From a virus, in the IMG/VR virus record IMGVR_UViG_3300042868_000716, positions 1 through 27,971 of that record: DNA of 27,971 bases, one strand, 5' to 3'. Position numbers and translations under genes: made by a program. The notes under the pieces were generated by a model, which was not told the DNA's origin, searched no databases, and saw nothing but the letters and a program-made list of their open reading frames with translations. Shown here one piece after another: positions 2,739-27,941 of this stretch (position 1 is the first letter of the stretch; every line of letters begins with the position of its first letter).

Positions 2739-2820
2739 AATTTAATTAATTAACGAAAGAATGCCCGAAGGGCGTAAAGGATTAACAAGCAGATTATGCG
2801 ACATAGTAAAAGGTTTTACA

Positions 2821-4449
2821 ATGGCTAAAATTACATTAAACAATATTACGAATACAAATCAAGTTTCTGTAATCAATGACAATTTTGATAAGATTGAGAA
2901 TGAATTACAGAATAAGGTTTTGTATAGAGACAATCCAAACAATGAACCCAATCCTCTGGTTACAGATGTAGATGTAAATCAAAGACGATTATACAATCTA
3001 CCAACTCCTGTATTGAGTCATCAGGCAGCTAGACTTAAAGATGTACAGAATGCTATTTCAGGAGCTACACAAGCCAATCTAATTAGCTTCACACCTTATG
3101 GGTCTATTTCTGCTGATACAGTACAAGGCGCTATTCAAGAGATTGTAGATGAGATGCCTACAGGTGGTGGAGGAGGTGGAGAAGCAGCTCCGGGAGGAGT
3201 AACTCTTTCAGATTTTGTTATTGATGCCACGACAGCAAACTCTCGTGTAGTGTTTACTGATACAGTTCCTGCTGGATGGAATATCAATGCAGGACGTTGT
3301 ACTGTAAGTTTTGACTTCCTTAGTAATGCATATTTCCAAGCCAACCCTACAGGACATATTGCTGTAGTTACTCGTGCTAATACGGATGTAATTGCTACAA
3401 GCGTATTTGGTACAGGTGTATGGATAGGTTATCTTGTAGGCGTAACTAACGCTAACGACTACGCTCCATCTATGGGCCTTGAGACGTGGGCTAATGGGGT
3501 TATGCCTAATAACAACTACTTGTTCCGTTATTCGGGCTCTCCTCGTAACATCCTACTTAAAGATGCTCAACAATATCGTGTTGTTATTGAGAGCACTAAA
3601 ACTACAGCGGGTGAAAGGTTTATTCGTTATAAGCTTTATGAACGTGAAGCTGTAAGTGAATATTGGAAGCTATTGAACGACACAGGGGATGTATTAGATC
3701 ATAATCGTTGGGCTGACTTAACAAAACACGGACTGGTTTTTGCTCACGTATTTGGAAGTAATCTGGTACCTTGGTCTTTAAGCTTTACCAATGTAAAGGT
3801 TACATGGAATGCTGCTCCTGCTGCTGTGTCAGATGCAACCAATAGGCTTTCTCGCTTTGGTGCAGACCTAGAAGGAGATTTGACATTACAAGGTAATGCA
3901 CGTCGTATCCGCGTAAACAACACAGGAAGTAATGCGGTCAATTGGACTTCGTTCCAAACAACGAACAGTAATGCCTCTACGTCCGTAATGGTAATCCCTA
4001 ACGGAACATCTACTACTTGTAATTTCTTTGCGGTTAATTCCAGCAACCCTGCTAGTTCTTATCGAGCAGCCACATTTGGAATGGCTGGAGGGGAAGCTTT
4101 AATTGAGACGTTTAATTTAGGACAAGTTGATCCAACGTTTAACATTAACATTGGGCCCGCAAACACTGTAGCTCGTTTCAAAACTACAGGTCTTAACATT
4201 CTAAATGCTGCTAGAGACATTGGTCAACCGGTTGAGTCGTATACGTTTATGAGTCAATGGGGAGGAAGTAGTGCAAAATCGTTTACAGACGGTACAGTGT
4301 TTAACGTAGATAGTGTTTGTACTGTCGGAACGATTCGTACGTTTATGAGTGCAACACCTACTAATGAACAAGTAGAAAATGCTTTACGTCCTCTCTACTG
4401 TATTGTATCAACCCTATACAAAGAACTAAAAGATAAGAAAGTTATTTAA
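2821..4449 (+). CDS. tail fibre / receptor-binding protein 1 (542 aa)
   Basis: Probable tail fibre. The start at 2821 (MAKITLNNITNTN) follows AAAAGG by seven bases and matches the start of the second fibre at 5752; the open frame to 2761 upstream is leader sequence. Residues 1-80 are the virion-anchoring domain, containing INDNFDKIENEL, VLYRDNP and RRLYNLPTP, a signature shared by many podovirus fibres. A poly-Gly hinge follows at about 115-120, then a beta-rich region (about 130-350) that looks like a lectin-type sandwich, and a C-terminal Asn/Thr/Ser-rich beta region. The last 40 residues (PTNEQVENALRPLYCIVSTL) form a helix that may trimerise. It opens the rightward operon and overlaps the next gene at TAATG. 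Confidence 0.85.
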   Translation: MAKITLNNITNTNQVSVINDNFDKIENELQNKVLYRDNPNNEPNPLVTDVDVNQRRLYNLPTPVLSHQAARLKDVQNAISGATQANLISFTPYGSISADTVQGAIQEIVDEMPTGGGGGGEAAPGGVTLSDFVIDATTANSRVVFTDTVPAGWNINAGRCTVSFDFLSNAYFQANPTGHIAVVTRANTDVIATSVFGTGVWIGYLVGVTNANDYAPSMGLETWANGVMPNNNYLFRYSGSPRNILLKDAQQYRVVIESTKTTAGERFIRYKLYEREAVSEYWKLLNDTGDVLDHNRWADLTKHGLVFAHVFGSNLVPWSLSFTNVKVTWNAAPAAVSDATNRLSRFGADLEGDLTLQGNARRIRVNNTGSNAVNWTSFQTTNSNASTSVMVIPNGTSTTCNFFAVNSSNPASSYRAATFGMAGGEALIETFNLGQVDPTFNINIGPANTVARFKTTGLNILNAARDIGQPVESYTFMSQWGGSSAKSFTDGTVFNVDSVCTVGTIRTFMSATPTNEQVENALRPLYCIVSTLYKELKDKKVI

Positions 4450-4586
4450 TGGAAAAGCAATTTATTGTATCGGGGAATCTGATTCAAGAAGTTATTAATT
4501 ATCTGCAAGAACGTCCATTTAAAGAAGTAGTGGGGCTAATCCAAGCCCTTGCTTCTTCGGTCCCTTACGTGAAGGAATTAGAATGA
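4449..4586 (+). CDS. 45-aa conserved-type small phage protein
   Basis: A short gene wedged between fibre 1 and the holin. The ATG overlaps the fibre stop (TAATG at 4447-4451) and its own TGA overlaps the holin start (ATGA at 4583-4586), so it is coupled on both sides. The product begins MEKQFIVSGNLIQEVINYLQ and continues ERPFKEVVGLIQAL, an amphipathic helical peptide. From memory, small proteins of the pattern LxxVIxYLxxxPFKEVxxLIxAL sit near fibre and lysis genes in other podoviruses. Function is unknown; a lysis-timing or fibre-associated role is speculation. Confidence 0.8.
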   Translation: MEKQFIVSGNLIQEVINYLQERPFKEVVGLIQALASSVPYVKELE

Positions 4587-4804
4587 TGCACGTAGTAGAT
4601 AATGTTTCAGATAGTGTAAAGATGGCTACAGCAACTGTAACTCCCGTATTAGCGTTAGCAGGTGTTCCTTTGGAACAATGGGTGTTCGTTCTTTCTGCAA
4701 TTCTAACTATCTTGTTTATCATTGAAAAAATTCCTAAAGCTTTTGTGAGCATCATGTGGATGTATCGTAAAATTGTTAGGAAACAAAATGCACCCAGCAA
4801 ATAA
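4583..4804 (+). CDS. holin (73 aa)
   Basis: Forms the inner-membrane lesion that triggers lysis. The product has two hydrophobic stretches, about residues 15-30 (ATATVTPVLALAGV) and 33-50 (WVFVLSAILTILFIIEK), followed by an amphipathic segment and a basic tail (RKIVRKQNAPSK). That is the usual class II holin size and layout. The ATG at 4583 follows AAGGA by six bases; ATG at 4586 is the alternative and would give a dual-start arrangement (MM). It directly precedes and overlaps the endolysin, with the spanins next, which supports the assignment. Because the endolysin looks like a SAR type, this may act as a pinholin; that is inference. Confidence 0.82.
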   Translation: MMHVVDNVSDSVKMATATVTPVLALAGVPLEQWVFVLSAILTILFIIEKIPKAFVSIMWMYRKIVRKQNAPSK

Positions 4805-5273
4805 ATGGTTATTAGGGTTGGCGGGTCCAGCCCTAATCTCCGGGGCCATGTTGTGGGAAGGCATTCGTACTACTTCGTATGAAGACCTAGCTGGAGTAAC
4901 CACAGTTTGCTACGGATACACAGGAGAGGATATTATAAAGGGTAAAACATATTCTAAGGGGGAATGTACCCTACTACTCCGTAAAGAGGTTCTAGAGCAT
5001 TCTAAGGGCGTTCTAGAGTGTGTTAAAGCTCCACTGAAAGAGAATGAGTATAATGCCTTTGTCCTTATGGCGTATAATGTTGGTGTGTCTGGGTTTTGTA
5101 GCTCACGAGCTTTACGTTTGTTTAATGAAGGTAAAACGATTGAGGCGTGCAGGGCAATAGCCTATTCTCCAAACGGTGCTCCTAACTGGAGCTATGTTAA
5201 GGGGAAGTTTGTCCAAGGGTTACATAACAGACGAATATATGAAATGAAGATGTGTTTAGGTCAACCTGTATGA
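4788..5273 (+). CDS. SAR-type endolysin, GH24 lysozyme (161 aa)
   Basis: Peptidoglycan-degrading muramidase. Counting from the ATG at 4788 (AGGA six bases upstream), the T4-lysozyme-type catalytic triad is E24 in WEG, D33 in YEDLAG and T39 in TTVCYGYT, with the canonical E-9-D-6-T spacing. Residues 7-22 (WLLGLAGPALISGAML) form a weakly hydrophobic Gly/Ala-rich segment without a cleavage site, typical of a signal-anchor-release domain. Six cysteines, one two residues after the catalytic Thr, would allow the disulfide control seen in P1 Lyz and R21 endolysins. The gene overlaps the holin by 17 bases, and its stop overlaps the i-spanin start (ATGA). A TTG at 4773 is in frame but too early for that ribosome site. 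Confidence 0.9.
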   Translation: MHPANKWLLGLAGPALISGAMLWEGIRTTSYEDLAGVTTVCYGYTGEDIIKGKTYSKGECTLLLRKEVLEHSKGVLECVKAPLKENEYNAFVLMAYNVGVSGFCSSRALRLFNEGKTIEACRAIAYSPNGAPNWSYVKGKFVQGLHNRRIYEMKMCLGQPV

Positions 5274-5755
5274 CAATCTATTATAAACTTATTCTTGCCA
5301 TTGTAATGCTAGGCTCTATCTGGGGCCTGCATTCATATGATAAAGAAAACGCAGTACGAAAAGCCGAAACTGCTATTGAGCTGCGTTTGAAAACCGAACA
5401 ACAACAAGCCGTCCTTGCAGCTATTGCTGATACGCAGAAAGCACAAGACGAGATTGTAAAGAAGTCTCTTGAGACTATTAAAGAACGAGATGAACAAATC
5501 AAAACTATTAAGCGTAAGCTTACTTCTGCTGTTGACAGCCTGCAAGACCGCCCCAGTCGTTCCGAGCAACATCCCAGCAATCCCGGTATTGCAAGCGCCT
5601 GCACCGGTAGAGAGCTTTCAAGAGAGGATGGAGAATTTCTTGCAAGGGAAGCTTCCGAAGCCGAGAAATTGATTTACGAACGAGACTACTATTATCAAGA
5701 ATACGAGACAGTTCGTATTCAACTTAATGAATTACGATTAAAAGGAAATAAATGA
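5270..5755 (+). CDS. Rz: i-spanin, Rz-like (161 aa)
   Basis: Inner-membrane spanin subunit that, with the lipoprotein encoded inside it, fuses inner and outer membranes at the last lysis step. One N-terminal membrane segment (about residues 5-22, YKLILAIVMLGSIWGL) is followed by a long charged coiled coil (about 30-100, with KAETAIELRLKTEQQQAVLA) reaching into the periplasm. The C-terminal third is Tyr/Glu-rich. The ATG at 5270 overlaps the endolysin stop; AGG nine bases upstream is its ribosome site. An earlier in-frame GTG at 5252 is less likely. The stop overlaps the fibre 2 start (ATGA at 5752-5755). Confidence 0.9.
   Translation: MTIYYKLILAIVMLGSIWGLHSYDKENAVRKAETAIELRLKTEQQQAVLAAIADTQKAQDEIVKKSLETIKERDEQIKTIKRKLTSAVDSLQDRPSRSEQHPSNPGIASACTGRELSREDGEFLAREASEAEKLIYERDYYYQEYETVRIQLNELRLKGNK
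5490..5672 (+). CDS. Rz1: o-spanin, Rz1-like lipoprotein, embedded in Rz (60 aa)
   Basis: Outer-membrane spanin lipoprotein encoded wholly within the i-spanin gene in another frame. From the ATG at 5490 the product is MNKSKLLSVSLLLLLTAC then KTAPVVPS: a basic start, a Leu-rich core and a lipobox (LTAC) with the lipidated Cys at residue 18. The mature 43 residues are Pro-rich (VVPSNIPAIPVLQAPAP), as in lambda Rz1. A TTG seven codons earlier is the alternative start. The fully embedded arrangement is the classical lambda one and confirms the spanin call for both genes. Confidence 0.92.
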   Translation: MNKSKLLSVSLLLLLTACKTAPVVPSNIPAIPVLQAPAPVESFQERMENFLQGKLPKPRN

Positions 5756-7035
5756 GCAAGATAACATTAGCTCCAATTCAAGGAGGCTACAATCTATCGG
5801 CTATTCAAAGCAACTTTGATGCAATTGCTCAAGAGTTGAATACAAGAGTTTTGTATAGAATCAATCCGGTAGGTGAACCTAATTCGTTTCAAACAGACTT
5901 TGACGCTAACGAGAAACGGATTTTTAATTTGCCAACCCCATTGTCAGCTTCTGAGCCAGTTCGTCTTATGGACTTGCAAGCGGCTATTGGAGGATCAGTA
6001 ACCTATTCTTGGAATGACATTACTGGTAAACCAACAACTTTTCCGCCTTCGGCTCATACTCATCCGATTACAGATATTGATGGCCTTGTTACAGCTTTAA
6101 CTGGTAAACAAGATACGCTTGTTAGTGGAACGAGTATTAAGACTGTTAATGGAAACAGCTTGTTAGGTTCAGGAGATATTGTTATTTCTGGAGGGGGAGG
6201 AGGTGGAGGTGACGTAGTTGGTCCAGCAAGTGCAACTAATAATGCTGTTGCTATTTTTAGCGGAACTACTGGAAAACTTTTAGCTGACAGTGCTAAAACC
6301 CTTCCTACTGGTACCGTGGTTGGAACCAGTGACACTCAAACACTAACCTCTAAGACACTAACTAGTCCCACAATCAACGGAGGTACTCATACTGCTTTAA
6401 CGTCTCTCGGTGTTCGTAACGCCGGTACTGGAGCGTTCGATATGACCATTGCTTATAATGGTACGCTAACAGCAGGACGTGCTCTTACGTGGAACTTAAA
6501 CGATGCTGCTAGAACGGTTTCTTTAGCTGGTAACATTACTACTGCAAATGCTTTTACCACGGCTGGAAACTTTGCTCTTACACTTACACAAACGGCTGCT
6601 ACTAACGTAACACTTCCTACAACCGGGACTCTTGCTACTCTGGCTGGAACGGAAACCTTGTCAAATAAGACACTGGCATCTCCTTCCGCTACTGGTACCT
6701 CTACGTTTCAAGGTATTCGTGAAACTGTTATTACAGCAAACACAGGGACAGCTTATACGGTAGTTAATACAGCAGGATCAATTCTAAATCTTACATTAAC
6801 CGGTAACTGTGTTTTTACTTTTCCAGCAGCTTCAAGTGGCGGACAATTTACACTGTTACTTTTACAAGATGCAACCGGGGCTAGAACTATTACTTGGCCA
6901 ACCAGCGTTCGCTGGCCCGGTGGAACGGCCCCTACTATAACTGCAACCGCTTCTCGTACCGACGTTATTTCGTTTGTATCAGATGGAACTTATTGGCTCG
7001 GGTTTGTTGGCGGTCAAAATTTTAATAGGGCTTAA
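5752..7035 (+). CDS. tail fibre protein 2 (427 aa)
   Basis: Second fibre, paralogous to the first at its N-terminus: 39 of the first 80 residues are identical in a gap-free alignment counted by eye, including NFD, VLYR, EPN and NLPTP. Next comes a common phage-fibre module (WNDITGKPTTFPPSAHTHP then ITDIDGLVTALTGKQ), a seven-Gly hinge at about 147-153, and Thr/Ser/Asn-rich shaft sequence with repeats of the type SNKTLASP / TSKTLTSP. The C-terminal part (FTLLLLQDATGARTITWP, WLGFVGGQNF) is a beta domain found at the end of many phage fibres. The ATG at 5752 follows AAAAGGA and overlaps the Rz stop. Shared anchors suggest both fibres attach to, or stack on, the same tail site. Confidence 0.87.
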   Translation: MSKITLAPIQGGYNLSAIQSNFDAIAQELNTRVLYRINPVGEPNSFQTDFDANEKRIFNLPTPLSASEPVRLMDLQAAIGGSVTYSWNDITGKPTTFPPSAHTHPITDIDGLVTALTGKQDTLVSGTSIKTVNGNSLLGSGDIVISGGGGGGGDVVGPASATNNAVAIFSGTTGKLLADSAKTLPTGTVVGTSDTQTLTSKTLTSPTINGGTHTALTSLGVRNAGTGAFDMTIAYNGTLTAGRALTWNLNDAARTVSLAGNITTANAFTTAGNFALTLTQTAATNVTLPTTGTLATLAGTETLSNKTLASPSATGTSTFQGIRETVITANTGTAYTVVNTAGSILNLTLTGNCVFTFPAASSGGQFTLLLLQDATGARTITWPTSVRWPGGTAPTITATASRTDVISFVSDGTYWLGFVGGQNFNRA

Positions 7036-16725: not shown

Positions 16726-18997
16726 GATAAATGCTTTTGTAAGGGGATTGATTACAGAGGCAAATCCTCTTAACTTCCCCGAGAACGCATCTGTAGACGA
16801 AGTTAATTTTGAGCTTGATCGTGATGGTTCCCGCTCTAGACGTTTAGGTATGGATTACGAAAGTGGATATATGCTTCGTAGTCCTACCCTCTCGGCTCCG
16901 GTTACAAGAGACACACCCATACAGACATTTGAATGGGAGAATGCTGGGTCTATTCCCGGTAAAACCCTTTTAGTAGTTCAGATTCTAAACAGTCTAGACT
17001 TTTTTGATTTAAGTCTCTCTCCTGTGTCGGCTTCTGGATTTCTTGGAAACATTGTATTAACCTCCACGCCGTCTAGCGATAACAGATATTCTCTGGCTTC
17101 TGTAGATGGACGCTTGGTTGTTGTAGATGGTTCTGGAGATATTTCGATTGTATCTTTTGATGGCACAAGCTTCACTCAAGAAACAAAGCGTATTCGAGTA
17201 CGTGATACGTGGGGAATTTCTTATGAACCTACTGACAACGATCCTACGTTTACACCAACTGTAAATTCAGATTTTCATAAGTACAATTTATACAATCAGT
17301 CTTGGGGACTTCCTAGACGTAATTACGGCAATGCTGGTGCGTACGTAGACCCAATGACTTTGTATCGTACTGAGTACAGTAAGTATCCTTCCGATAGCGA
17401 AGTGGTGTACACAGGATTACAGCTACAGCCAGTAAGTCCTCCCAGTGTACCTACAGAACGCCTATTCATCAATCTGTACAAAGAACAGTTCGGTATTACG
17501 GTTAAAGCTTCACGAGGCTACTTCCTTATCGACCTGCTTCGTAGAGGGGCTTCTAGAGCCTCTGAGGTGGCTACAAACGCCACTAAGCATCCTGAGATGG
17601 AGATGCAATCCTTAACTTGCCCGCAAGACTATACACCTAATGGTGCTAATGTAGTTTGTGAATTTGCAGGACGAGTGTTTTATGCTGGATTCTCTGGCAC
17701 TGTTGTAGATGGTGATGGGCGTAGTCCTGATCTTTCTAACTATATTGCATTCTCGATGTTGGTTAAGAATAAGAATGACATTGTAAAATGTTATCAAGAG
17801 GGCGATCCTACTTCCCGAGAAGGGAGCGATCTAGTAGATACAGACGGTGGACTAATCCGTATCTCTGGTGCTGATGGTATTCTGCAAATGATTAACATCG
17901 GAACCAACCTCGTTGTGTTCGCTCGTAACGGTGTATGGGTTGTAAGTGGGGGTTCAGACTATGGATTCTCAGCTACCAACTATAAAGTTTCTCGTATTAC
18001 GAAGTTTGGACTGTTAAGTGCTAATTCGGTTGTACAGGAAACTGGAAGAGCTTTCTATTGGTCTACGGATGGTATCTACGCAATTGTCCCTACGCAAGTG
18101 GGAGACTTAACTGTAGAGAATATCACTGAGACAACGATTCAAACATTGTACGAATCAATCAGTACAGCTGATAAGTCTCGGGTCAAAGGTACATATGATT
18201 TGACAGGTAAGAAGATTCGCTGGATTTATACTCAAGATGTTCCTGAAAAGAGTACCTATGTAACCACAGAGCTTATCTTCGATACGGTACTAAAGGCATT
18301 CTACAAACATGAGATTGTTAAATTCAGTTATCAGTTTGGTCCTGAAATAGCTGGCATCTTTAAGTCTCCTCCATTCAGTTTCTCCAGTACTTTATCTAAT
18401 GTAACAGCAGGTGGTGTAGACGTTATTGCTAACGGTAATCCAGTAGTTTATGGTGTGTCCGATTCCATTACAGGAGTTAAGTCAACACGCTATCTATCTA
18501 TTGAGATTAGTGGGGGTATTGCTACATATACTTTTGCTAATTACAGCAACGGTTTGTTCCGTGATTGGCAAGGTGTTAATGGCGTAGGTATTGATGCTAA
18601 AGCATATTTACTAACAGGAGCTATCACAGCTGGTGATTCGTCTATTGCCAAGCAGGCCCCTTATCTGGTTATGCACTTCGAACGAACTGAAGATGGATTG
18701 TCTGGAGTATACGAGCCAACCAACCCATCTAGCTGTTTAGTACGTAGTCAATGGGATTTTACTAACACAATCAATTCTAACAAATGGGGGCCTTTGTTCC
18801 AAGCTTATCGTTATTCTCGTGCATTTATTCCTGAATCAACAGCCACAGACTTTGATAATGGATATGAAATTGTAACGAGTAAGAATAAGCTACGAGGACG
18901 AGGCCGCGCCCTATCTCTGTACATGGAGACAGAGAGCGGTAAGGATTGTAGAATTATGGGCTGGTCCCTTACACTAAATGGAAATTCAGTCACCTAG
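16700..18997 (+). CDS. tail tubular protein B, gp12-like nozzle (765 aa)
   Basis: Hexameric nozzle at the end of the short tail. I place the start at 16700 (MVKKAAKAEINAFVRGLITE) because the following NPLNFPENASVDEVNFELDR is the standard N-terminus of this family; the open frame upstream to 16652 lies within the preceding gene and has no purpose. The body is beta-rich and repetitive, with SGADGILQMINIGTNLVVFA, NGVWVVSGGSDYGFSATNYK and AFYWSTDGIYAI, as in the propeller of T7 gp12. Length is in the family range. It overlaps the next gene by 20 bases. Confidence 0.88.
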   Translation: MVKKAAKAEINAFVRGLITEANPLNFPENASVDEVNFELDRDGSRSRRLGMDYESGYMLRSPTLSAPVTRDTPIQTFEWENAGSIPGKTLLVVQILNSLDFFDLSLSPVSASGFLGNIVLTSTPSSDNRYSLASVDGRLVVVDGSGDISIVSFDGTSFTQETKRIRVRDTWGISYEPTDNDPTFTPTVNSDFHKYNLYNQSWGLPRRNYGNAGAYVDPMTLYRTEYSKYPSDSEVVYTGLQLQPVSPPSVPTERLFINLYKEQFGITVKASRGYFLIDLLRRGASRASEVATNATKHPEMEMQSLTCPQDYTPNGANVVCEFAGRVFYAGFSGTVVDGDGRSPDLSNYIAFSMLVKNKNDIVKCYQEGDPTSREGSDLVDTDGGLIRISGADGILQMINIGTNLVVFARNGVWVVSGGSDYGFSATNYKVSRITKFGLLSANSVVQETGRAFYWSTDGIYAIVPTQVGDLTVENITETTIQTLYESISTADKSRVKGTYDLTGKKIRWIYTQDVPEKSTYVTTELIFDTVLKAFYKHEIVKFSYQFGPEIAGIFKSPPFSFSSTLSNVTAGGVDVIANGNPVVYGVSDSITGVKSTRYLSIEISGGIATYTFANYSNGLFRDWQGVNGVGIDAKAYLLTGAITAGDSSIAKQAPYLVMHFERTEDGLSGVYEPTNPSSCLVRSQWDFTNTINSNKWGPLFQAYRYSRAFIPESTATDFDNGYEIVTSKNKLRGRGRALSLYMETESGKDCRIMGWSLTLNGNSVT

Positions 18998-19286
18998 AAT
19001 TACTTATTACGAGAATTCAGATTTTAAGTTTGAATATGAACGTGCAGGTAATGAGGTTTGCATCCATTGTGAGATTTACAATTGGAAGCTTTCCGTATTA
19101 AGATTTGGGTACTCAGTAATTAATTCGCTATTGGAAGAATGTAAAAAGAACGGTGTGGAGATTGTATATACGATCTCCCCCAATCCTAAATTCGCAAAGC
19201 TCTATGGCGGTAAGTCTGTCAAGGCTTTCACCTTAAACAACACAGAATATGAGATTGTAATATGGGACTTGAGACAGCAACCCTAG
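18978..19286 (+). CDS. small protein in the gp13 position, GNAT-like C-terminus (102 aa)
   Basis: It lies between the nozzle and the first core protein, where T7 has gene 13. The product begins MEIQSPRITYYENSDFKFEY; the C-terminal half (KKNGVEIVYTISPNPKFAKL then YGGKSVKAFTLNNTEYEIVI) has the pattern 'strand - NPxxxKLYG - strand' seen at the end of acetyltransferase-like folds and in T7 gp13 (NTSHIRFLKTIGAVF). There is no evident acetyl-CoA loop, so it is probably not an enzyme. It overlaps its neighbours on both sides (20 and 25 bases). Assignment by position and weak similarity. Confidence 0.68.
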   Translation: MEIQSPRITYYENSDFKFEYERAGNEVCIHCEIYNWKLSVLRFGYSVINSLLEECKKNGVEIVYTISPNPKFAKLYGGKSVKAFTLNNTEYEIVIWDLRQQP

Positions 19287-19750
19287 CCCTGATTGCTACT
19301 GGTGCTTCGGTAGCAGGCACAGTAGCTGGTGTTATGAATAATAACAAAGCTAGGCAAGAACAGAAGAAAGTACAAGCTGAACAGAATGCTTCCAATAGAG
19401 CACAACAGCTTGAAGAACAACGTAGACAAATTCGAGAAGAGCGTGTTAAACGAGCGCGTGTTATGCAAGCATCTGAAAACACAGGAGTAGCAGAGAGTTC
19501 AGGAGAGACAGGCGCTATAGCAAGCATGTCTACACAACTATCTACGAATATGGCATTTAATGCCGGAGCCGCACAACGAGCTAGTAATATCGGACAGTTT
19601 CAACAGAATGCTGCTGATGCTGCTGGTAGGGCTCAGATGGCAACCTCCCTTGGACAGTTTGCCCCTACCGCTTTGAATCTCGGTAATAGTATTTTTAACA
19701 CCGTTGATTCAGACCCTCTGGGTACATTTATCAAACAAAAAGGATTGTAA
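19262..19750 (+). CDS. internal virion protein, gp14-like (162 aa)
   Basis: Probable ejection protein that forms the outer-membrane part of the DNA channel. It has a small-residue hydrophobic segment at the N-terminus (about 5-25, TATLALIATGASVAGTVAGV), then a charged coiled coil (QEQKKVQAEQNASNRAQQLE, EQRRQIREERVKRARVMQAS) and a low-complexity Ala/Gln/Asn-rich tail (GAAQRASNIGQFQQNAADAA). Size and layout match T7 gp14. The stop overlaps the start of the giant core protein (TAATG at 19748-19752). Confidence 0.82.
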   Translation: MGLETATLALIATGASVAGTVAGVMNNNKARQEQKKVQAEQNASNRAQQLEEQRRQIREERVKRARVMQASENTGVAESSGETGAIASMSTQLSTNMAFNAGAAQRASNIGQFQQNAADAAGRAQMATSLGQFAPTALNLGNSIFNTVDSDPLGTFIKQKGL

Positions 19751-22700
19751 TGAATGAGATTGACAGCCTTCTAGGCGTTGAGTCTACTCCTGTAGAGCTG
19801 AAGGATATTGTAGGAACCAACCTCCCTTCTATCTCTCTTCCACAAGCAGCTATCCGTAACCGAGCATCTACAGTAGCTCTGTTGTCTGAAGACCCTGCTA
19901 AGGCTGTCGATAATTATCAAGTTATGATGGCTGAAGGAGAGAGCGGTTCCGATACCATCGTAAAGAGTCAGCAAGAGCGTATCCTCTCCCAAGCAGAGCA
20001 AGACGATACGAAGAACTTTATGACTGTATTATCTGACCCCTCCATCCCTATGGAACGTAAGCAAGCAGTTATCAAGAACATGTATAACAATCCTGTACGT
20101 AAGGATGTTACTACTAAGCTGATGACAGACTCCTTAGCTAAGGAGAGTGCTGGTGAAACCATCGAAGCAGAAGATGCTCGTATTGGTGCCACCTCTAGAG
20201 CTATTAACGAAATCTATCGTGCTCGTGAAGAGATTCAAGGATTGGTTAATGCTCACGGTGCTTCTCTGGGTCAAGGAGGTACTGCTCGTGCCGTAGGTGA
20301 AATTGCCAGCTCTTGGGTTGCTCCTCTGAGCCAGAACATTCTGATGGCTACGCTCACTCAGAACAAGCCCGGAGCAACTCTCTGGGATGCTGTGAAGGCA
20401 TTGGCTCTTCCCGGAAGTGCTAAGGAGAAGATGTTCAATGAGCTGAAGAATCTTCCTCCCGCTGAACGGGTTAAGGCTTCTAAAGAATTCTTAGATTTGA
20501 TTTCTAAGAACAGTCAAACCCTGTTTGCAAACAATAACCAATTTGCTCAATACGAATTGGCTCGTGATGCGTTTAACGAAGGAAGTTATACCAGCTTTGA
20601 CAAATGGCTTGATAACATCACTGGTGTTCTTGACATTGTAGGTTTAGGTGCTGTCGGACGTGTACCTAGAGGAGTTGCAAAGCTCGAAGCAGAGGCTAAT
20701 GCTGCCAGTAAGGGGGTAGGTGCTCCTCAATCTGTACAGCCTGCTGTAGAGGCTTCTAGGGGCCTTCCTGCCGGTATTACGACTGGAGATTTGGCTAAGG
20801 TTGAAGCTAAGCCCACACGAGGGGTGTTTGATGGTAGAATTGCTTCGTTGGAAGAGCAGAAAGCTAAGTTGCTTGGTGAAGGGGGTAACATGCTCGATAA
20901 CGGGCAAGTTGCTTCTCTGACACAAGAGCGTAAGCAAATTGCTTCCACGTTGCCAGATGTTAAGGCTTTGGCTAAGGACATTCAGGCAGAGCAAGGGGTT
21001 ACGAGTAAGGAAGCTAAGAAGCGTGCTGAAAGCATCTTTGCTGAACGTAGCACTGAAGTTCAATCTACTCTGGCTCGTATTGATTCTCAGCTTGAAACCA
21101 ATCGTAATGCTTCTACTGTTACGCAGAAGATTGCTGACATTGAGAAAGAGATTGCTCTTCTTCAGAAGCGTAACACAGAAGTGTTCATTCCGAAGAATCC
21201 TCTGGCTGATGCCATTTCTCGTATTGAGCTGAATGCTCCAGTGCGTATGGCTAACCCAGCTTCTCCTATTGAAGTTATTAAGCTGGCTAATCCACAGCAA
21301 GCACGTAATATGCACGAGCTGTTGGTTAAGAGTGCAGACGATTCGGTAGCCGAAGGTATTGCTGGTACATCCCGTATGCAGGCTATTGTCAACAATGTGT
21401 TCCCACAAGTTACTACGCCTAGTGGACGTGTAGCTGCACAGCCTGTTGATATTGAGCGTAATCTCCGTAGAGAAATGCAAGTGCCTGATTCCATCTACAA
21501 AGCAATTTGGGATGATGGTGGTATTATGTATACGCCTCAAGAGAAAGCTGTTGCTAAGGCTAATCTGGTAAGAGACTTCCAGAAGGCTGAGGGATTGGTT
21601 ATGCGTCAGAACATGGGTGGATTCCATGATGATGGGTTGCGCTTTAACATCTCCGCTGTATATGGAACTCCTGAAGGGGATTTCAAGAATGCACGTCAGG
21701 CTTTTGAACAAGCTAAGTATGCCCTCCGTCAACAGGGTGTTCTTGATGACGAGATTGAAATTCTGAGCAAGGAAGGTTTAGACTACGTTCCAGTTAAGCT
21801 GGCAGATGTAGGTGAGTCGGAAGGTAGTTATCTGGTTCGTGTAAATACGAAACATGAGATTGATCCTACTGATGTTGTTAGCTTTGAACAATCTAAAGTT
21901 AAGCTAAACTTTTTGGACCGTCTCCCCGGAACCCAATGGGGACAACACGGTAACGCCTCCCGCTATCTGTTCGATGCTTCTTCCATGCTTGATCCGAAGT
22001 ACACAGGAGCTGCTAGTGTAGCAACTGATCGTGCTGCTGGATTTGAGAAGCTTATGTTGGATGTGGCTACTCGCTATTCTGACATTTACACGAAACTGTC
22101 GAAGGACGCTAAGGTTCGTGTAGACAGCTACTTGCTTGAAGCTAACTACAATCAACTGGCATTTGATGCAGGTGATTTGCGTAAGCGTGGTATGCAGGCT
22201 GATGAAATTCAAGCCGTAAAGGAATGGAGACATTTCTGGGACGGACATTTCTATTTGGAAAATCTGGATATGGTCCGTACCTTGAACAGTCAAGGCTATT
22301 CCATGTTCAAGAATGCTAACGCTGAACTGTTTGCAAAGCCTGTTAGTAAGAACAGCTCTATCGGTAAGGTGTATGATCCTGCTACGGATACGATTGTAAC
22401 GCTCTCACAAAAGGAGCTGGATGATCTATATAACACTAACGGTACATACGCTCGTCTCCGTCGTCCTACAGATTTTGGAGGGACTGTTGTTGAACACATG
22501 ATTGTTCGTAACACACCTACTGAATATCTCCGTAAGATTCGAGATAATGATCGTGTTCTTAATTACCGAGAAGGATATTTCCAACTTCAATATAATGCTC
22601 CTAGATTCGTAGATGAGATTAGTGTTGGAGCCAATGGTGAGAAGATTCGTAAGGCTGTTGCTGTTGCAGGAGATACACCTGAAGCTAAACGTTTTGCAGA

Positions 22701-24810
22701 ACGTATGAATGCTAATGCTCCTCCGGGAGTTGTCTACATTGATCGTGCTGATGAACGTGCTCTCCGTAGAGGCAGTGATGATTGGTTTGATGTGAATTCT
22801 GCTTCTGGGCGTATTGCTCAGAGACACAGAGGGAAGCTTCTGGAAGATGCAGCAGGCATGAATCATCTGGGAGACGGAAGCTACATCCTTGATCCTGTTA
22901 CATCCGCTATCAGGGCTGCTAGAAGCATCTCTGGACGTACAGTTACTAGGCCCATGCTGGAAGCCTCTAAGGCTAGATTCATGGAACAATACAAACACCT
23001 GCTTCCTTCTGATGGTATGGGCGGTGTACGTATGCCTAATTCTGTTGGAGAGATTGGTGAGAAAGGTAAAGTTCTTGGCTCTGAAGTTGCTGATGCTCGT
23101 ACTGTGTTCAACAACATCCACTATCTGGAGAACGGATATATCAATGGACTGGATTCTGTATGGAAGCAGTTTTTCTATTCGTTAGCTGAGAAGGCTGGGG
23201 ATAAAGGTCTTGGAAAGTCTCAACGAGCACTTCTGGGAACAGGTGAAATTGCTCCAGCACAACTTGGTAAAGAGAGTGTGTTCATGGCAACCATTGGAAC
23301 AAACCCTCTGCGACAATGGATTGTACAGGCTCACCAAGGCACCCGTATGATTGCTTACAATCCTATCGGATGGATGAATGGTCAAATCCCATATCTGTTT
23401 GCTGGATTTATGGAATCTAGAATTTCTGGTCGTCCTATCTCCAAGGAGATGGCTAAGTTCGTTGATTTCGTAGAAAGCAGCGGAATGATGGCAGCAGTGG
23501 ATAAGCAGAATCTGGTACGCGGAACCTTAGTTGATGCTGCTGATTCGTCTAACAAAGCTGTACGAATGGCTGTTGCTGGACCAAACCTCTTACGTAAAAT
23601 CGGCTTCGATACGAGTGAAATGGCAAATACGTTAGTTCACTTAGCTGCTGTATATGAGCGTGAAGTTCGTGCAGGTAAAGATTTGACGAATAAAGCATTA
23701 CGGGATGAAGCATATTCTACGACACGAGCTGTTAGCTGGGATATGAACTTTGCAGGAGACATGCCTTATAACCAAACAGCTCCGAGCTTGATTCTTCAGT
23801 TTATGCAAGTACCTCATAAGGCGTTCTTGCAGCTTCTGAATAGACGAATCCCTGTGGGCGATAGAGCAAGACTTATTGGCGGAGATATTATCTTCTGGGG
23901 ACCTCCTACATTATTGGTTAGCGAAATGATGGGTGGAGATATTCTTCCTGAGAATAAAGATTTGAGAGAGCTGTTTACGTATGGAGCCGAAAGCCTCCTG
24001 TTAAACAAAGCTTTCCAAACACTTCTAAAGGATGATTCAATCAACATTGATTGGTCTTCTTTGGCTCCGTATGATATGCACGGATGGGCTCAGATTCTCC
24101 ATGGGTTCTATACGGGCGGTATTCAGAAAGCTATTGCTAATAGTCCAGCAGGTCAAATGTTCTTATCTGACGGAGGACGTGTACAGCAAGCCCTTGGGTC
24201 TGCTCTGCGTTTCTTCGGAATGTCTGAACCTATTGGTGAAACGCCAGACTCGTATCTGCATGTCATCAACGAAGTAATGAAGATTTCTTCAGGATGGAGT
24301 AATGCAACCAAAGCATACATTGCTCTGGAAGCTGGTAAGCGTCAAGATAAATATGGACGTCCTGTTGCTGACAGTGTGCATAACGCTGAAGCTATCATGT
24401 TGGCGTTCGGATTTAACGATGCTTCTCAACGAGACAATTGGAAGCTGATTGAAAAGTCTAACAAGATGACAAAATCCTTCAAGGATGATGTACTCAAAGA
24501 CTATAAGAACATCCTCCAATACTACCAGTCGGAAATGGGTAAGGGGGTACAGTCGGTTGAACAAATGACTGCTGTAACTTCCTTTGTCCTGAAGCGTTAT
24601 GAAGGTAATCCGGAGGCTTTGGAAATCATCCAGAGACAGCTTGCTCTTGACTTGACTGATCCCAACTCTAAACTGTTATATCAGATTATGAAGGCCAGTG
24701 GTCTTCCTGAAGCTGAAAAGCTTAAGGACTCCATTCGTATGGCTAACATTCCTGATGACCAAAAGAAACTGGTTCTTGATCGTTTAGACGACATTCAAGC
24801 ACTTAAATAA
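19750..24810 (+). CDS. giant internal virion / ejection protein, gp16-like (1686 aa)
   Basis: Largest gene in the window and the likely inner-membrane channel protein of DNA ejection. It is mostly helical and charged, with coiled-coil stretches (SLEEQKAKLLGEGGNMLDNG, IADIEKEIALLQKRNTEVFI) and weakly hydrophobic segments late in the chain (NPIGWMNGQIPYLFAGFM, IIFWGPPTLLVSEMMGGDIL). NPLRQWIVQAHQGTRMIAYN is a stretch I associate with podovirus core proteins. T7 gp16 carries an N-terminal transglycosylase; I see no such motif here, so a separate cell-wall activity may be needed. AT-biased codons match its neighbours. Confidence 0.85.
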   Translation: MNEIDSLLGVESTPVELKDIVGTNLPSISLPQAAIRNRASTVALLSEDPAKAVDNYQVMMAEGESGSDTIVKSQQERILSQAEQDDTKNFMTVLSDPSIPMERKQAVIKNMYNNPVRKDVTTKLMTDSLAKESAGETIEAEDARIGATSRAINEIYRAREEIQGLVNAHGASLGQGGTARAVGEIASSWVAPLSQNILMATLTQNKPGATLWDAVKALALPGSAKEKMFNELKNLPPAERVKASKEFLDLISKNSQTLFANNNQFAQYELARDAFNEGSYTSFDKWLDNITGVLDIVGLGAVGRVPRGVAKLEAEANAASKGVGAPQSVQPAVEASRGLPAGITTGDLAKVEAKPTRGVFDGRIASLEEQKAKLLGEGGNMLDNGQVASLTQERKQIASTLPDVKALAKDIQAEQGVTSKEAKKRAESIFAERSTEVQSTLARIDSQLETNRNASTVTQKIADIEKEIALLQKRNTEVFIPKNPLADAISRIELNAPVRMANPASPIEVIKLANPQQARNMHELLVKSADDSVAEGIAGTSRMQAIVNNVFPQVTTPSGRVAAQPVDIERNLRREMQVPDSIYKAIWDDGGIMYTPQEKAVAKANLVRDFQKAEGLVMRQNMGGFHDDGLRFNISAVYGTPEGDFKNARQAFEQAKYALRQQGVLDDEIEILSKEGLDYVPVKLADVGESEGSYLVRVNTKHEIDPTDVVSFEQSKVKLNFLDRLPGTQWGQHGNASRYLFDASSMLDPKYTGAASVATDRAAGFEKLMLDVATRYSDIYTKLSKDAKVRVDSYLLEANYNQLAFDAGDLRKRGMQADEIQAVKEWRHFWDGHFYLENLDMVRTLNSQGYSMFKNANAELFAKPVSKNSSIGKVYDPATDTIVTLSQKELDDLYNTNGTYARLRRPTDFGGTVVEHMIVRNTPTEYLRKIRDNDRVLNYREGYFQLQYNAPRFVDEISVGANGEKIRKAVAVAGDTPEAKRFAERMNANAPPGVVYIDRADERALRRGSDDWFDVNSASGRIAQRHRGKLLEDAAGMNHLGDGSYILDPVTSAIRAARSISGRTVTRPMLEASKARFMEQYKHLLPSDGMGGVRMPNSVGEIGEKGKVLGSEVADARTVFNNIHYLENGYINGLDSVWKQFFYSLAEKAGDKGLGKSQRALLGTGEIAPAQLGKESVFMATIGTNPLRQWIVQAHQGTRMIAYNPIGWMNGQIPYLFAGFMESRISGRPISKEMAKFVDFVESSGMMAAVDKQNLVRGTLVDAADSSNKAVRMAVAGPNLLRKIGFDTSEMANTLVHLAAVYEREVRAGKDLTNKALRDEAYSTTRAVSWDMNFAGDMPYNQTAPSLILQFMQVPHKAFLQLLNRRIPVGDRARLIGGDIIFWGPPTLLVSEMMGGDILPENKDLRELFTYGAESLLLNKAFQTLLKDDSINIDWSSLAPYDMHGWAQILHGFYTGGIQKAIANSPAGQMFLSDGGRVQQALGSALRFFGMSEPIGETPDSYLHVINEVMKISSGWSNATKAYIALEAGKRQDKYGRPVADSVHNAEAIMLAFGFNDASQRDNWKLIEKSNKMTKSFKDDVLKDYKNILQYYQSEMGKGVQSVEQMTAVTSFVLKRYEGNPEALEIIQRQLALDLTDPNSKLLYQIMKASGLPEAEKLKDSIRMANIPDDQKKLVLDRLDDIQALK

Positions 24811-24822
24811 TAAAAGGAATAT

Positions 24823-26640
24823 ATGGCAGAATTTGGTGAACGTGCCACACAGCTCTCTCCCCCTCAAGGGGCGGGAGCTTCCCCTATTGCTCCGGTTACG
24901 GCAGGGCTGATGGATAATGGGGTTTTCAAAGGTATAGCAAACATCGTAGACATCTTTGAGAAGGGTTTACAGAACGATGCTAAAGCTAAGGCAGCAGCAG
25001 CAGAACAAGCTGTCGTAGGAGGATATGCTAAGAAGCTACAAGCTCTTAACGATGCTGCTACGTCTGGGCAGATGAAGCCTAGTGAAGTGGCTGCTAGACA
25101 ACGAGCCTTACACAGCGAGTACGTAGGGGGCTATTCCCAATACGTAGACAGCTTGGATAAGGTGAGTAAGTCGTTCAAGGGTACGGAGATTGGAGCGGCT
25201 GAGGATAAGATTAAGACAGAGCAGGAGCTTCGTAAGGAAGCTGTTTCTGCTGCTCAGAAGGCCGGATTCCCTATTACTGAGGGAATGGGTGAGAAGACTG
25301 TTCAGGCGATGGTTGACGCACATCAAACGGCTGTTAGAACTGATGCCGAATTCCAGCGGTATACGGCTAAGGCTGCTGAAGAGAGAGCTTCTGGGAGATA
25401 CTCTCAGGATGTTACAGATAGGGAATACAAGCAAAAGAGCCTGATGCTTGTTAACGAAGTAGCTAATACCAATTTATCTACCGCTTCACAATATGCTATG
25501 GACATTGGTGAACGGCTACGAGCTAACAAGATTGATTTGAATACAGCTAATGCTGAATGGGCTACATACACAGCACGTATTGAAGCTCAGATTCAATCTG
25601 CTTCTGGAATCAATCCAGAACTGGCTGCTCCTTATCGTTCTTTGTTTGCTGATTTGAAACTTACTGGAGCTAAGCTTTTTGATCCAAAGGCTGAACTTGA
25701 TGTTATTAACAATCAAATCAACCTCATCCAAGCGCGTGGTAAACTAGCAGCACTAGGAGACCCGCAGGTAGCTGCTGCTGTCGTAGGCTCTCAACTGTTA
25801 GGTACTAATGCTGATTTGGCATTACGCGCTTCTCCAGTGATGCTTAAAGCTATTGATAAGTTGTCCAAGCTAGATGTAAACGCTCCAGGATATAAGCCTC
25901 AAGTTGTAGGTAATCCTGAAGTTGAAAAGCCTACTCTCGACTTCATTAAAGATAGTATTGATCGTCTAGGTACTGGTCGTTATAAAGATGAGCCCCAAGC
26001 TAAAACTGAACTGACTAACACCATCAATAACATGTTGGCACAAGTTGGTAAAGAGATGGGGAATAACGGAGCGGATGCTAAGTATCTAAAGAACGTAGCA
26101 GATTTCGTTGCATCTACTAAATATGGTAAGTATGCTTCTGAAAATCCTATGGACGCTAAGACACTTGCTATGGCTACCAAGACGTTCCAGACAGCATATG
26201 AAGGACCTGTTGTAGCTAGTATCGACAAGAAGCTTACTGAAGCTTTCGTTACCAATACAGGGCTTGTTCCCAATCGTGCTGCTACAGGAGGAACTCTCCA
26301 ACCTACGGAGAAAACATTTGATCGTTCCAATCTGAAGATTAATTTCTCCGGTAGTGGTATTTATTTTGATTTAGCTAAGACACCTACTGATCCTATTGAG
26401 CGTCAAAACGCACAGAAGACAATACAGGCGTTGAAGGAAGCGGAGACAGGTGTTAACCAGTTGATTCGTCTAGGTGCTCACTTGGAAGGATCGGTTAACT
26501 ACGCTAAGTATTGGGAAGATAATAAGCACATTATTCTGCCTCGACTGTTCTCTAAGTACGAAGGACTAGAGATTGGTCAAGTGGTTAATGGTAAGACTTA
26601 TATGGGGGGTGATGCTCGTGACGCAACCAACTGGAAGTAA
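24823..26640 (+). CDS. internal virion protein, gp15-like (605 aa)
   Basis: Second large core protein, preceded by AAAGGA. The product is Ala/Lys/Glu-rich and helical, with an N-terminal disordered segment (ERATQLSPPQGAGASPIAPV), a coiled coil (KGLQNDAKAKAAAAEQAVVG) and a more globular C-terminus (FSGSGIYFDLAKTPTD, KYWEDNKHIILPRLFSKYEG). Composition and place fit the periplasmic tunnel protein (T7 gp15). The order here is 14-16-15 compared with T7's 14-15-16, so assignment to gp15 is by size and composition only. Its 3' end overlaps the next gene by 23 bases. Confidence 0.75.
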   Translation: MAEFGERATQLSPPQGAGASPIAPVTAGLMDNGVFKGIANIVDIFEKGLQNDAKAKAAAAEQAVVGGYAKKLQALNDAATSGQMKPSEVAARQRALHSEYVGGYSQYVDSLDKVSKSFKGTEIGAAEDKIKTEQELRKEAVSAAQKAGFPITEGMGEKTVQAMVDAHQTAVRTDAEFQRYTAKAAEERASGRYSQDVTDREYKQKSLMLVNEVANTNLSTASQYAMDIGERLRANKIDLNTANAEWATYTARIEAQIQSASGINPELAAPYRSLFADLKLTGAKLFDPKAELDVINNQINLIQARGKLAALGDPQVAAAVVGSQLLGTNADLALRASPVMLKAIDKLSKLDVNAPGYKPQVVGNPEVEKPTLDFIKDSIDRLGTGRYKDEPQAKTELTNTINNMLAQVGKEMGNNGADAKYLKNVADFVASTKYGKYASENPMDAKTLAMATKTFQTAYEGPVVASIDKKLTEAFVTNTGLVPNRAATGGTLQPTEKTFDRSNLKINFSGSGIYFDLAKTPTDPIERQNAQKTIQALKEAETGVNQLIRLGAHLEGSVNYAKYWEDNKHIILPRLFSKYEGLEIGQVVNGKTYMGGDARDATNWK

Positions 26641-27661
26641 TGAAGCTCCCAAGGAACAAATGCCTTGGGAGATGACTTGGACTGAAAAAGCTAAGCAAGC
26701 TATCACATCTACAATCGACACAGCTAAGAAGGCTGTAGAAGGCGTCCAGATGCCTTGGGAACGCGATTGGAAAGAGAAGCCAAGGGTAGCCCCTACCCCA
26801 GCTCCTGAGAAGCCTGTAGACCTTTCTAAGCCCGTCTATCCTACTGAATCTTCTATGAAGGTTGCGGCTAAGCTCTCTCCACAAGAGGAGGCTAGAAGTG
26901 CAGCTAGAGAACGTTCTAGCCAGAACATTAAGGAGCTTCAGAAGGAGATTGAGAGAACGAAGGACCCTAAAGCTAAGAAGGTGCTTACGGACTATATGAC
27001 TTCTTTAGGAGGGACAACCTCACAAAAAGAAATAGGGGCGGGTACAGATAAGGGTGATGCTAAGTTAAAAACACTACTTGATAACGCAGCTAACAATTCT
27101 GACTTTAAGACCCTTTATTCTTTCCTCCAAGATAAGAACAGTCTCCCTGAGATGAAAGTAGATCCTTCTATTGACAGTAGGGGCGTATTTACATACGGAG
27201 ATGGAATGCCTAGCTCTGGGGTTCTGTCTGTAGGTGGTTCCTCGCAAGGGTATGTCTCTACGTTGGTACATGAGATGACTCATGCTGCTGATCGTCAAAT
27301 GATACGCTTGTCTCAGGATATTGAAAAAGCTATTCGTAACAAAGAGAAAGTCTCTAACGAAGAGAAACAATTCTTAGAGAACTGGAAGAAGTCCTTTGGA
27401 GCACGTAGTATTGGCGAGGGTGGTGGAGAAGCTGTAGGGATGAAGTCGTTGATGAAGTCTGTAGCTGATCCTAAATGGCTATCTGATAATCAAGACTATC
27501 GCACTACACGTTCTGAATCTATTGCTCACGGAGTAGGTAATGTAAATAAGAAAGCTTCTGAAATCTACAATTTACAAACACACATGGACCCATCTATCGC
27601 AACAGAGTTTATGATTCTTCTGAATCAAGCGAATAAGATTAGTAAGAAACGAAAGGACTAA
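26618..27661 (+). CDS. HExxH metallopeptidase-like virion-module protein (347 aa)
   Basis: Probable zinc metallopeptidase. From the GTG at 26618 (GGGGGG eight bases upstream), the product has two copies of a QMPWExxWxEK motif near the N-terminus, a Pro-rich linker (VAPTPAPEKPVDLSKPVYP), a helical region, then GYVSTLVHEMTHAADRQM with the HExxH site at H218-E219-H222. About 78 residues later TRSESIAHGVG supplies a plausible third ligand (a Glu), as in gluzincins. ATG starts at 26612 or 26588 are alternatives. It ends the core-protein block, so it may be packaged and act on the host envelope or trim virion proteins. No signal peptide. Confidence 0.7.
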   Translation: MTQPTGSNEAPKEQMPWEMTWTEKAKQAITSTIDTAKKAVEGVQMPWERDWKEKPRVAPTPAPEKPVDLSKPVYPTESSMKVAAKLSPQEEARSAARERSSQNIKELQKEIERTKDPKAKKVLTDYMTSLGGTTSQKEIGAGTDKGDAKLKTLLDNAANNSDFKTLYSFLQDKNSLPEMKVDPSIDSRGVFTYGDGMPSSGVLSVGGSSQGYVSTLVHEMTHAADRQMIRLSQDIEKAIRNKEKVSNEEKQFLENWKKSFGARSIGEGGGEAVGMKSLMKSVADPKWLSDNQDYRTTRSESIAHGVGNVNKKASEIYNLQTHMDPSIATEFMILLNQANKISKKRKD

Positions 27662-27662
27662 T

Positions 27663-27941
27663 ATGCCCCAAAAAGGTGAATTTAAGAAGGGCGCTAAGCC
27701 GGACAGTGTACGACAGAGAGCGTATAATTCTAAGCCCTCAAGTAAGAAAGATAGAGCTTCTCGTAATGCAGCCCGTAGTGAAGCTATGAAAGACGGGAAG
27801 GTTAAGAAGGGAGATGGTAAGGATATTGACCATAAGAATTCCAACCCTCGTGACAATCGTAAGGGTAACACCCAAGTTATGCCAGCTAGTAAGAATCGTG
27901 CAATGAATCAACACGATCCTCGTCAAAAGAAGAAGAAATAA
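27663..27941 (+). CDS. small HNH-like nuclease / DNA-binding protein (92 aa)
   Basis: Very basic protein. The N-terminal half (RQRAYNSKPSSKKDRASRNA) is a positively charged helix. The C-terminal half carries KDIDHKNSNPRDNRKGNTQV then MPASKNRAMNQ, the pattern of a minimal HNH/His-Me finger: D56-H57, N61, N65, N69 and N78. The third metal-ligand His of the classical site is Asn here, as in many active phage HNH proteins. AAGGA precedes the ATG by five bases. Small HNH proteins assist TerL-mediated packaging in other phages, but this one lies far from terL, so a homing or recombination role is also possible. Confidence 0.68.
   Translation: MPQKGEFKKGAKPDSVRQRAYNSKPSSKKDRASRNAARSEAMKDGKVKKGDGKDIDHKNSNPRDNRKGNTQVMPASKNRAMNQHDPRQKKKK

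What the first reader, a model, noticed from the sequence alone, without database searches (positions are those of the whole stretch)
26618..27661. HExxH metallopeptidase in the internal-virion-protein module
HEMTH with a plausible downstream Glu ligand, coupled to the gp15-like gene. Ejection proteins normally supply transglycosylase activity; the 1686-aa core protein here shows no such motif. A packaged zinc protease (acting on envelope proteins, peptidoglycan cross-links or virion precursors) would be a different strategy.
Basis: partly seen in the sequence, partly recalled or inferred. Interest (0 to 1): 0.65.

Follow-up and report, generated by a model that had tools for sequence, protein, structure and literature searches.

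The report
Tagged zinc protease in phage ejection module
A Zobellviridae-like bacterial virus carries, at the position where its relatives usually keep a cell-wall-cutting enzyme that is probably delivered with the DNA, a predicted zinc protease with the same N-terminal tag, so the tag looks like a constant carrier and the enzyme like an exchangeable load.

Summary
Window 26618-27661 (GTG start, 347 aa) carries HEMTH at residues 218-222. In 44 aligned relatives H218, E219, H222, Y294, E300, H322 and D324 are invariant. A model of residues 141-347 (pLDDT 84, pTM 0.85) is a gluzincin resembling the M34 fold (lethal factor/PPEP) and, more weakly, the HExxH domain of the N4 virion RNA polymerase.

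The window is a fragment of a Zobellviridae-like podophage. The gene lies between IVP-C and an HNH gene. In 26 related loci this slot encodes a protein whose N-terminus usually bears PW motifs, often tandem PWxxxW: 20 carry an SLT transglycosylase, 2 of these also an unrelated HEVQH zincin-like domain, and 6 carry only tag plus helical module. The window protein is that tag, that module and the zincin. Separate lysozymes elsewhere in at least seven SLT-slot genomes indicate that the slot SLT is not the lysis endolysin. Zincin homologues elsewhere lie mostly next to portal genes, some fused to SLT.

Best reading: an ejection-module cargo, a zinc endopeptidase loaded by the tag and acting on protein at or after ejection. 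Packaging, activity and substrate are inferred. Closest precedents: N4 vRNAP and polyvalent-protein metallopeptidases. New variant of a known kind.

The parts
26618..27661 (+). tagged zincin gene, 347 aa, GTG start, overlaps the IVP-C gene by 23 nt
   Evidence: ORF and translation; overlap
26663..26680 (+). tag motif 1, PWEMTW (residues 16-21)
   Evidence: tandem pattern matches once in the window, 0 in 100 shuffles; homologous to the N-termini of slot SLT proteins, blastp E 1e-20 to 3e-21
26753..26770 (+). tag motif 2, PWERDW (residues 46-51)
26828..27007 (+). helical linker module (residues ~71-130), which ends the enzyme-less slot proteins of relatives
   Evidence: 41 bits to L130 and 27-35 bits to L135, L128, L145, against a shuffle maximum of 7.7; helices in the model
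27038..27658 (+). zincin domain (residues 141-347)
   Evidence: AF2 pLDDT 84, pTM 0.85; fold matches to M34 and other zincins; family profile E 5e-61 at 27053-27658
27269..27283 (+). HEMTH active-site motif (residues 218-222)
   Evidence: H218, E219, H222 invariant in 44 sequences
27497..27517 (+). Y294-R295-x4-E300: probable catalytic Tyr and third zinc ligand
   Evidence: invariant; E300 at the start of helix 298-308 in the model
27581..27589 (+). H322-x-D324, invariant pair of unknown role
24823..26640 (+). IVP-C (T7 gp15-like position), upstream partner
   Evidence: phrog_18587 E 2e-28; Zobellviridae homologues
19750..24810 (+). IVP-D, 1686-aa core ejection protein without an SLT match
   Evidence: Zobellviridae homologues; no SLT
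19262..19750 (+). IVP-B position
   Evidence: phrog_8168, synteny
27663..27941 (+). small HNH endonuclease-like gene that closes the slot
   Evidence: PF13392 at its cut-off; same position in relatives
4583..5755 (+). separate lysis cassette: holin-like, Phage_lysozyme endolysin, Rz-like spanin

Best explanation
The gene encodes a cargo protein of the ejection module. An N-terminal tandem PWxxxW tag and a helical module, shared with the slot proteins of related Zobellviridae-like phages, dock the protein to the ejection proteins (most likely IVP-C or IVP-D) during assembly. The C-terminal LF/PPEP-type gluzincin domain leaves the virion with the ejection proteins and cleaves a protein substrate at or after ejection, most likely a host envelope or periplasmic protein that hinders the ejection channel, or a host protein in the cell. 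Shown here by sequence: gene position, homology of tag and module, zincin family and invariant residues, predicted fold, and the occurrence of SLT or zincin on one tag at one conserved slot. Inferred: packaging, ejection, zinc binding, catalysis, and the substrate class.
For: Zincin: invariant HExxH, Tyr, Glu in 44 relatives; AF2 domain model pLDDT 84, pTM 0.85; VIA-align Z 9.8, rmsd 3.8 over 156 residues to lethal factor, Z 7.4 to PPEP-3, Z 4.9 to the N4 vRNAP HExxH domain, the listed rows dominated by zincin folds; hhalign to the N4 domain E 1.6e-4, probability 50%. Ejection module: IVP-B, IVP-D, IVP-C directly upstream. Slot: of 26 related loci with a readable slot gene, 20 have SLT, 6 have tag plus module only; Pfam SLT confirmed in L097, L099, L100, L101, L125, L137, L140. 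Tag homology: 51% over 69 residues to L097 and L100, E 1e-20. The tag is not chance: 15 viral contigs match the tandem pattern, 1 matches a permuted control, and the matches lie at the N-termini of large proteins, placed in ejection-like modules in L105, L113, L115. The slot enzyme is not the lysis endolysin in genomes that carry both SLT in the slot and a lysozyme or amidase elsewhere; the window has its own lysis cassette at 4583-5755. Association with SLT elsewhere: 13 of 38 large zincin proteins start with an SLT domain, and about 40 of 70 zincin genes lie next to a portal gene.
Against: No virion proteomics or activity data exist for this virus. No PW-tagged protein was shown to be packaged. 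In Zobellviridae such as PA11 and CVT22 the same position holds the lysis endolysin, so the slot does not by itself prove virion location. Six relatives have no enzyme in the slot and no SLT in the record, so the benefit of any enzyme there is unclear. Foldseek E-values against PDB are weak (0.3), no Pfam family reaches its cut-off, and several Z values lie in the range where unrelated models also score.
Confidence: 0.6

Rival explanations
1. The zincin is a processing protease. It cuts virion proteins or itself during head maturation or packaging, and may stay in the virion only as a by-product.
For: About 40 of 70 homologous genes lie next to the portal gene. In the giant proteins the zincin domain is flanked by repeated [FYM]A-x-GG-x-V linkers, 97 observed against 3.6 expected, on both sides of the domain in 15 of 31, which look like possible cutting sites. 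PMC5512222 proposes autoproteolysis for polyvalent metallopeptidases and cites processing of P1 DdrB.
Against: Standalone versions of about 205 aa have no fused partner to cut. Related Zobellviridae-like phages do without any zincin of this family (positive control), so it is not an essential maturation protease in this lineage. N4 vRNAP, with a zincin-like domain, is packaged uncut (PMC5512222).
Confidence: 0.22
2. It is a peptidoglycan endopeptidase that takes over the wall-opening job of the slot transglycosylase.
For: It sits in the SLT slot with the SLT protein's tag, and homologous zincins are fused to SLT domains.
Against: The nearest folds are protein endopeptidases of M34. SLT-less, zincin-less relatives exist, so a wall enzyme in the slot is not required. 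L137 and L140 carry SLT together with a different zincin-like domain, which suggests different jobs.
Confidence: 0.1
3. It is not packaged: a late-expressed protein acting inside the infected cell or in lysis, placed by chance in a slot that holds lysis genes in other Zobellviridae.
For: In PA11, GP100, CVT22, Pecta and Klyazma this position holds the lysis endolysin.
Against: The window has a full lysis cassette elsewhere, and the tag is found on ejection-module-like proteins in unrelated podoviruses.
Confidence: 0.1
4. The HExxH domain is no peptidase: an oxygenase-like or catalytically dead relative used as a structural part.
For: The alpha-ketoglutarate HExxH domain of ChlB also matches the model (Z 6.3), and PMC12633501 notes that HExxH occurs in such enzymes.
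Against: Complete invariance of the HExxH, Tyr and Glu set across 44 divergent sequences is that of a gluzincin active site; M34 folds score higher.
Confidence: 0.06

Closest known systems
SLT lytic transglycosylase slot proteins of Zobellviridae-like phages (e.g. L097, L100, L101, L099; T4S1-k141_462158)
   Same: same slot between IVP-C and HNH; homologous tandem PW tag in the L097/L100/L101/L099 type
   Different: catalytic domain is SLT; the window has a zincin and an extra helical module instead
Coliphage N4 virion RNA polymerase gp50, C1 HExxH domain
   Same: packaged and ejected podophage protein with a zincin-like domain (PMC12633501); fold match Z 4.9-5.1, profile match E 1.6e-4
   Different: a 3500-aa polymerase of another phage family; the zincin is internal there, and no PW tag was seen in the fragment examined
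MPTase-PolyVal zincins of polyvalent proteins (PF18818; Iyer et al. 2017, PMC5512222)
   Same: LF-like zincin fold, Asp three residues after HExxH, fusion to transglycosylase domains, giant multidomain relatives
   Different: sequence below the Pfam cut-off (14.8 against 27.5 bits); the window protein is small and tag-borne
M34 peptidases (PPEP-1/2/3, lethal factor)
   Same: best fold matches over the whole domain; Tyr shortly before the ligand Glu (M34 Tyr position from own knowledge)
   Different: no sequence-level match; about 15% identity
T7 gp16 / internal virion transglycosylases
   Same: enzyme domain delivered with ejection proteins (own knowledge)
   Different: zincin instead of transglycosylase, on a separate small protein

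Membership tests
Zincin superfamily, gluzincin type (clan MA) | HExxH on an active-site helix | tested here: met
   H218-E219-H222 invariant; helix 213-240
Zincin superfamily, gluzincin type (clan MA) | downstream Glu ligand on a following helix | tested here: met
   E300 invariant, helix 298-308; distance to the His pair not measured
Zincin superfamily, gluzincin type (clan MA) | zinc binding and proteolysis | not testable with these tools
   needs purified protein
MPTase-PolyVal (PF18818) | Pfam score above the curated cut-off | tested here: not met
   14.8 bits against 27.5
MPTase-PolyVal (PF18818) | occurs in large multidomain mobile-element proteins | tested here: inconclusive
   true of 38 of 70 relatives, not of the window protein
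Peptidase M34 (LF/PPEP) | fold | tested here: met
   Z 9.8, rmsd 3.8, 156 residues to LF; Z 7.4 to PPEP-3; a shared fold, not proof of function
Peptidase M34 (LF/PPEP) | sequence-level match | tested here: not met
   no M34 model or chain among Pfam or PDB sequence matches
Peptidase M91 (PF14891) | Pfam score above the curated cut-off | tested here: not met
   17.1 bits against 25
Zobellviridae IVP-C slot proteins | gene between IVP-C and HNH with tandem PW tag | tested here: met
Zobellviridae IVP-C slot proteins | SLT domain (present in 20 of 26, so not universal) | tested here: not met
   no SLT in protein or record
Virion ejection proteins | present in virions and ejected | not testable with these tools
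   needs virion mass spectrometry

The most novel reading that the evidence does not exclude
Tandem PWxxxW motifs at the N-terminus are a general docking signal by which podoviruses load exchangeable cargo (transglycosylase, zinc protease, large pilot-like proteins) into the ejection machine; this phage has plugged in a zinc protease where its relatives carry a wall-cutting enzyme.
Probability: 0.4. Interest if true: 0.75.

Novelty: new variant of a known kind. Interest (0 to 1): 0.58.

Why it matters
What ejected phage enzymes other than transglycosylases do to the host is largely untested. Here nature has made a domain exchange at one conserved slot: same tag, three loads (transglycosylase, zinc protease, none). 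That gives a simple system to test what tags a protein for packaging and what an ejected protease adds. The tag itself was found on other podovirus ejection-module-like proteins; the only paper search made for it (the literal string PWEMDW, one library) gave no hits.

Tried and rejected
Direct search of annotated phages with the protein gave nothing. The genome collection gave no relative with the alignment query, so no cellular relative was found at that sensitivity. The IVP-D query found no loci in viral contigs; the IVP-C alignment did. An alignment that included the tagged SLT proteins forced SLT onto zincin (A2) and was replaced by A3 and A4. Homology of the HEVQH domain of L140 to this zincin family was tested and not found (hhalign probability 2%); it is treated as a separate zincin-like domain. 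Papers: no hits for the tag string or for internal virion protein with transglycosylase and metallopeptidase. Peptidoglycan cleavage was considered and ranked low. Amidase_2 was not found in the five tagged-SLT records, so their lysis enzyme is unknown except for the L099 record (lysozyme). The neighbours of the 419/657-aa type standalone loci were not identified by my seeds; that they are terminase and portal is only a guess from position and size.

Full report
OBSERVATION. The ORF at 26618-27661 is real: GTG start with a G-rich ribosome-binding stretch, 347 aa, 23-nt overlap with the upstream gene. HEMTH lies at residues 218-222. It is the only HExxH in the 24 plausible window genes; 0.1 are expected after shuffling. 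Two scans of viral contigs gave 12 and then 71 loci that encode relatives. HExxH is present in 70 of 70 examined, and in a 44-sequence alignment H218, E219, H222, Y294, R295, E300, H322, D324, A328 and T329 never vary. Many of these loci are near copies of each other, so the number of independent lineages is smaller. No relative was found in annotated phages by direct protein search or among bacterial and archaeal genomes.

FOLD. AlphaFold2 with 41 sequences gives residues 141-347 at pLDDT 84 and pTM 0.85: helices, a three-stranded sheet, the HExxH helix, and a later helix that begins near E300 (full-length model). Structural second look: lethal factor Z 9.8 (rmsd 3.8, 156 residues), Certhrax 8.0, PPEP-3 7.4, an alpha-ketoglutarate HExxH domain 6.3, lugdulysin (M30) 5.4, N4 vRNAP 4.9. 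Foldseek alone is weak (E 0.3), so the claim rests on the list being dominated by zincin folds together with the invariant residues. No Pfam family reaches its cut-off; among the weak ones are zincins such as DUF6782, M91, SprT-like and MPTase-PolyVal. The invariant Tyr six residues before the Glu recalls the catalytic Tyr of M34 peptidases (own knowledge). Profile comparison with the N4 vRNAP HExxH domain gives E 1.6e-4, probability 50%.

WHERE IT SITS. IVP-D and IVP-C have Zobellviridae homologues at 22-34% identity. The record is a 27,971-base virus record, probably a fragment, as complete relatives are about 45-54 kb. Zobellviridae follow the order tube B, IVP-A or GNAT, IVP-B, IVP-D, IVP-C, slot, HNH. 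In PA11, GP100, CVT22 and relatives the slot is the lysis endolysin, with holin and spanin in some. In T4S1-k141_462158 and T4S1-k141_502596 an amidase and spanin lie upstream of the terminase and the slot holds a separate SLT. The window has the second layout: holin-like, lysozyme and Rz-like genes at 4583-5755.

THE TAG AND THE EXCHANGE. The slot protein of T5S1-k141_444551 begins with two PWxMxW motifs, as the window protein begins with PWEMTW and PWERDW. A DNA pattern for the tandem motif found eight viral contigs; five are slot proteins of Zobellviridae-like phages with an SLT domain or the start of one. L097 and L100 share 51% identity over 69 residues with the window N-terminus (E 1e-20), although their catalytic domain is SLT. 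A scan led by IVP-C then gave 28 loci, 26 with a readable slot gene: 20 with SLT, of which L137 and L140 carry a further HEVQH domain at the C-terminus, and 6 with tag and helical module but no enzyme. Nearly all have at least one PW motif; L148 has none. The helical module of the window protein matches the enzyme-less proteins at up to 41 bits against a shuffle maximum of 7.7. The window protein therefore reads as an enzyme-less slot protein with a zincin appended, or as an SLT exchanged for a zincin; the data do not separate the two histories. The six enzyme-less records contain no PF01464 match. None of 20 related records has a zincin of this family; a control run found it in the window and three zincin loci.

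WHY THE SLOT ENZYME IS NOT THE LYSIS ENZYME. The L099/L144 record has SLT in the slot and a Phage_lysozyme elsewhere, as do six further SLT-slot records: those of L133, L136, L139, L140, L141 and L148.

THE TAG ELSEWHERE. With a shorter spacing the tandem motif is found in 15 further contigs, against 1 for a permuted control pattern. These are larger proteins with the tag at the N-terminus. In L105, L113 and L115 they follow genes that look like internal virion proteins and precede tail-fibre-like genes (judged by eye from order and sequence). This supports, but does not prove, a docking role.

THE ZINCIN ELSEWHERE. 32 of 70 relatives are ORFs under 300 aa and 38 lie in larger proteins. About 40 lie next to a portal homologue and many directly after a terminase. 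13 of the 38 large proteins begin with an SLT domain (Pfam E 1e-11 to 1e-12 in L007 and L009). BFVD fold matches include large polyvalent proteins and a transglycosylase protein. Iyer et al. (PMC5512222) describe LF-like metallopeptidase domains in polyvalent phage proteins, including N4 vRNAP, whose metallopeptidase region is needed for packaging, and their fusion to transglycosylases. The N4 structure preprint reports a conserved HExxH in the C1 domain (PMC12633501).

MECHANISM. Most likely the tag and module bring the protein into the virion with the ejection proteins, and the zincin cuts a protein at or after ejection. Confidence 0.6 for the whole statement; about 0.93 for the zincin identity and 0.8 for ejection-module cargo (own estimates). 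A processing role is the main rival. Membership: it meets the fold and residue criteria of the gluzincins, does not meet the sequence cut-offs of MPTase-PolyVal or M91, and lacks the SLT domain of most of its slot relatives.

Noticed in passing
L044-L089 giant proteins, e.g. L072:590-3988: Repeated [FYM]A-x-GG-x-V linkers at domain borders, 97 observed against 3.6 expected, on both sides of the zincin in 15 of 31; possible processing sites.
   Followed up: partly
L137:6793-8169, L140:6787-8157: Slot proteins with tag, SLT and an unrelated HEVQH zincin-like domain: a second, apparently independent zincin in the same slot.
   Followed up: partly
L102-L116: Tandem PW[ED]MxW tag at the N-terminus of 550-830-aa proteins (or fragments cut by the locus end), ejection-like in the three loci read (L105, L113, L115); families of unknown function in PHROGs where matched.
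   Followed up: partly
L071, L073, L075, L083: Giant zincin proteins carry a second HE[LT]EH motif further on, possibly another metallopeptidase domain.
   Followed up: no
window 18978-19286: Gene at the position where other Zobellviridae carry a GNAT-like protein; no significant Pfam match.
   Followed up: no
window 2761-4449 and 5752-7035: Two tail-fibre-like genes with similar N-terminal anchors on either side of the lysis cassette.
   Followed up: no
L014, L018 against window and L092: The lysis cassette of Zobellviridae lies either after IVP-C or upstream of the terminase, so it has moved in the family.
   Followed up: partly
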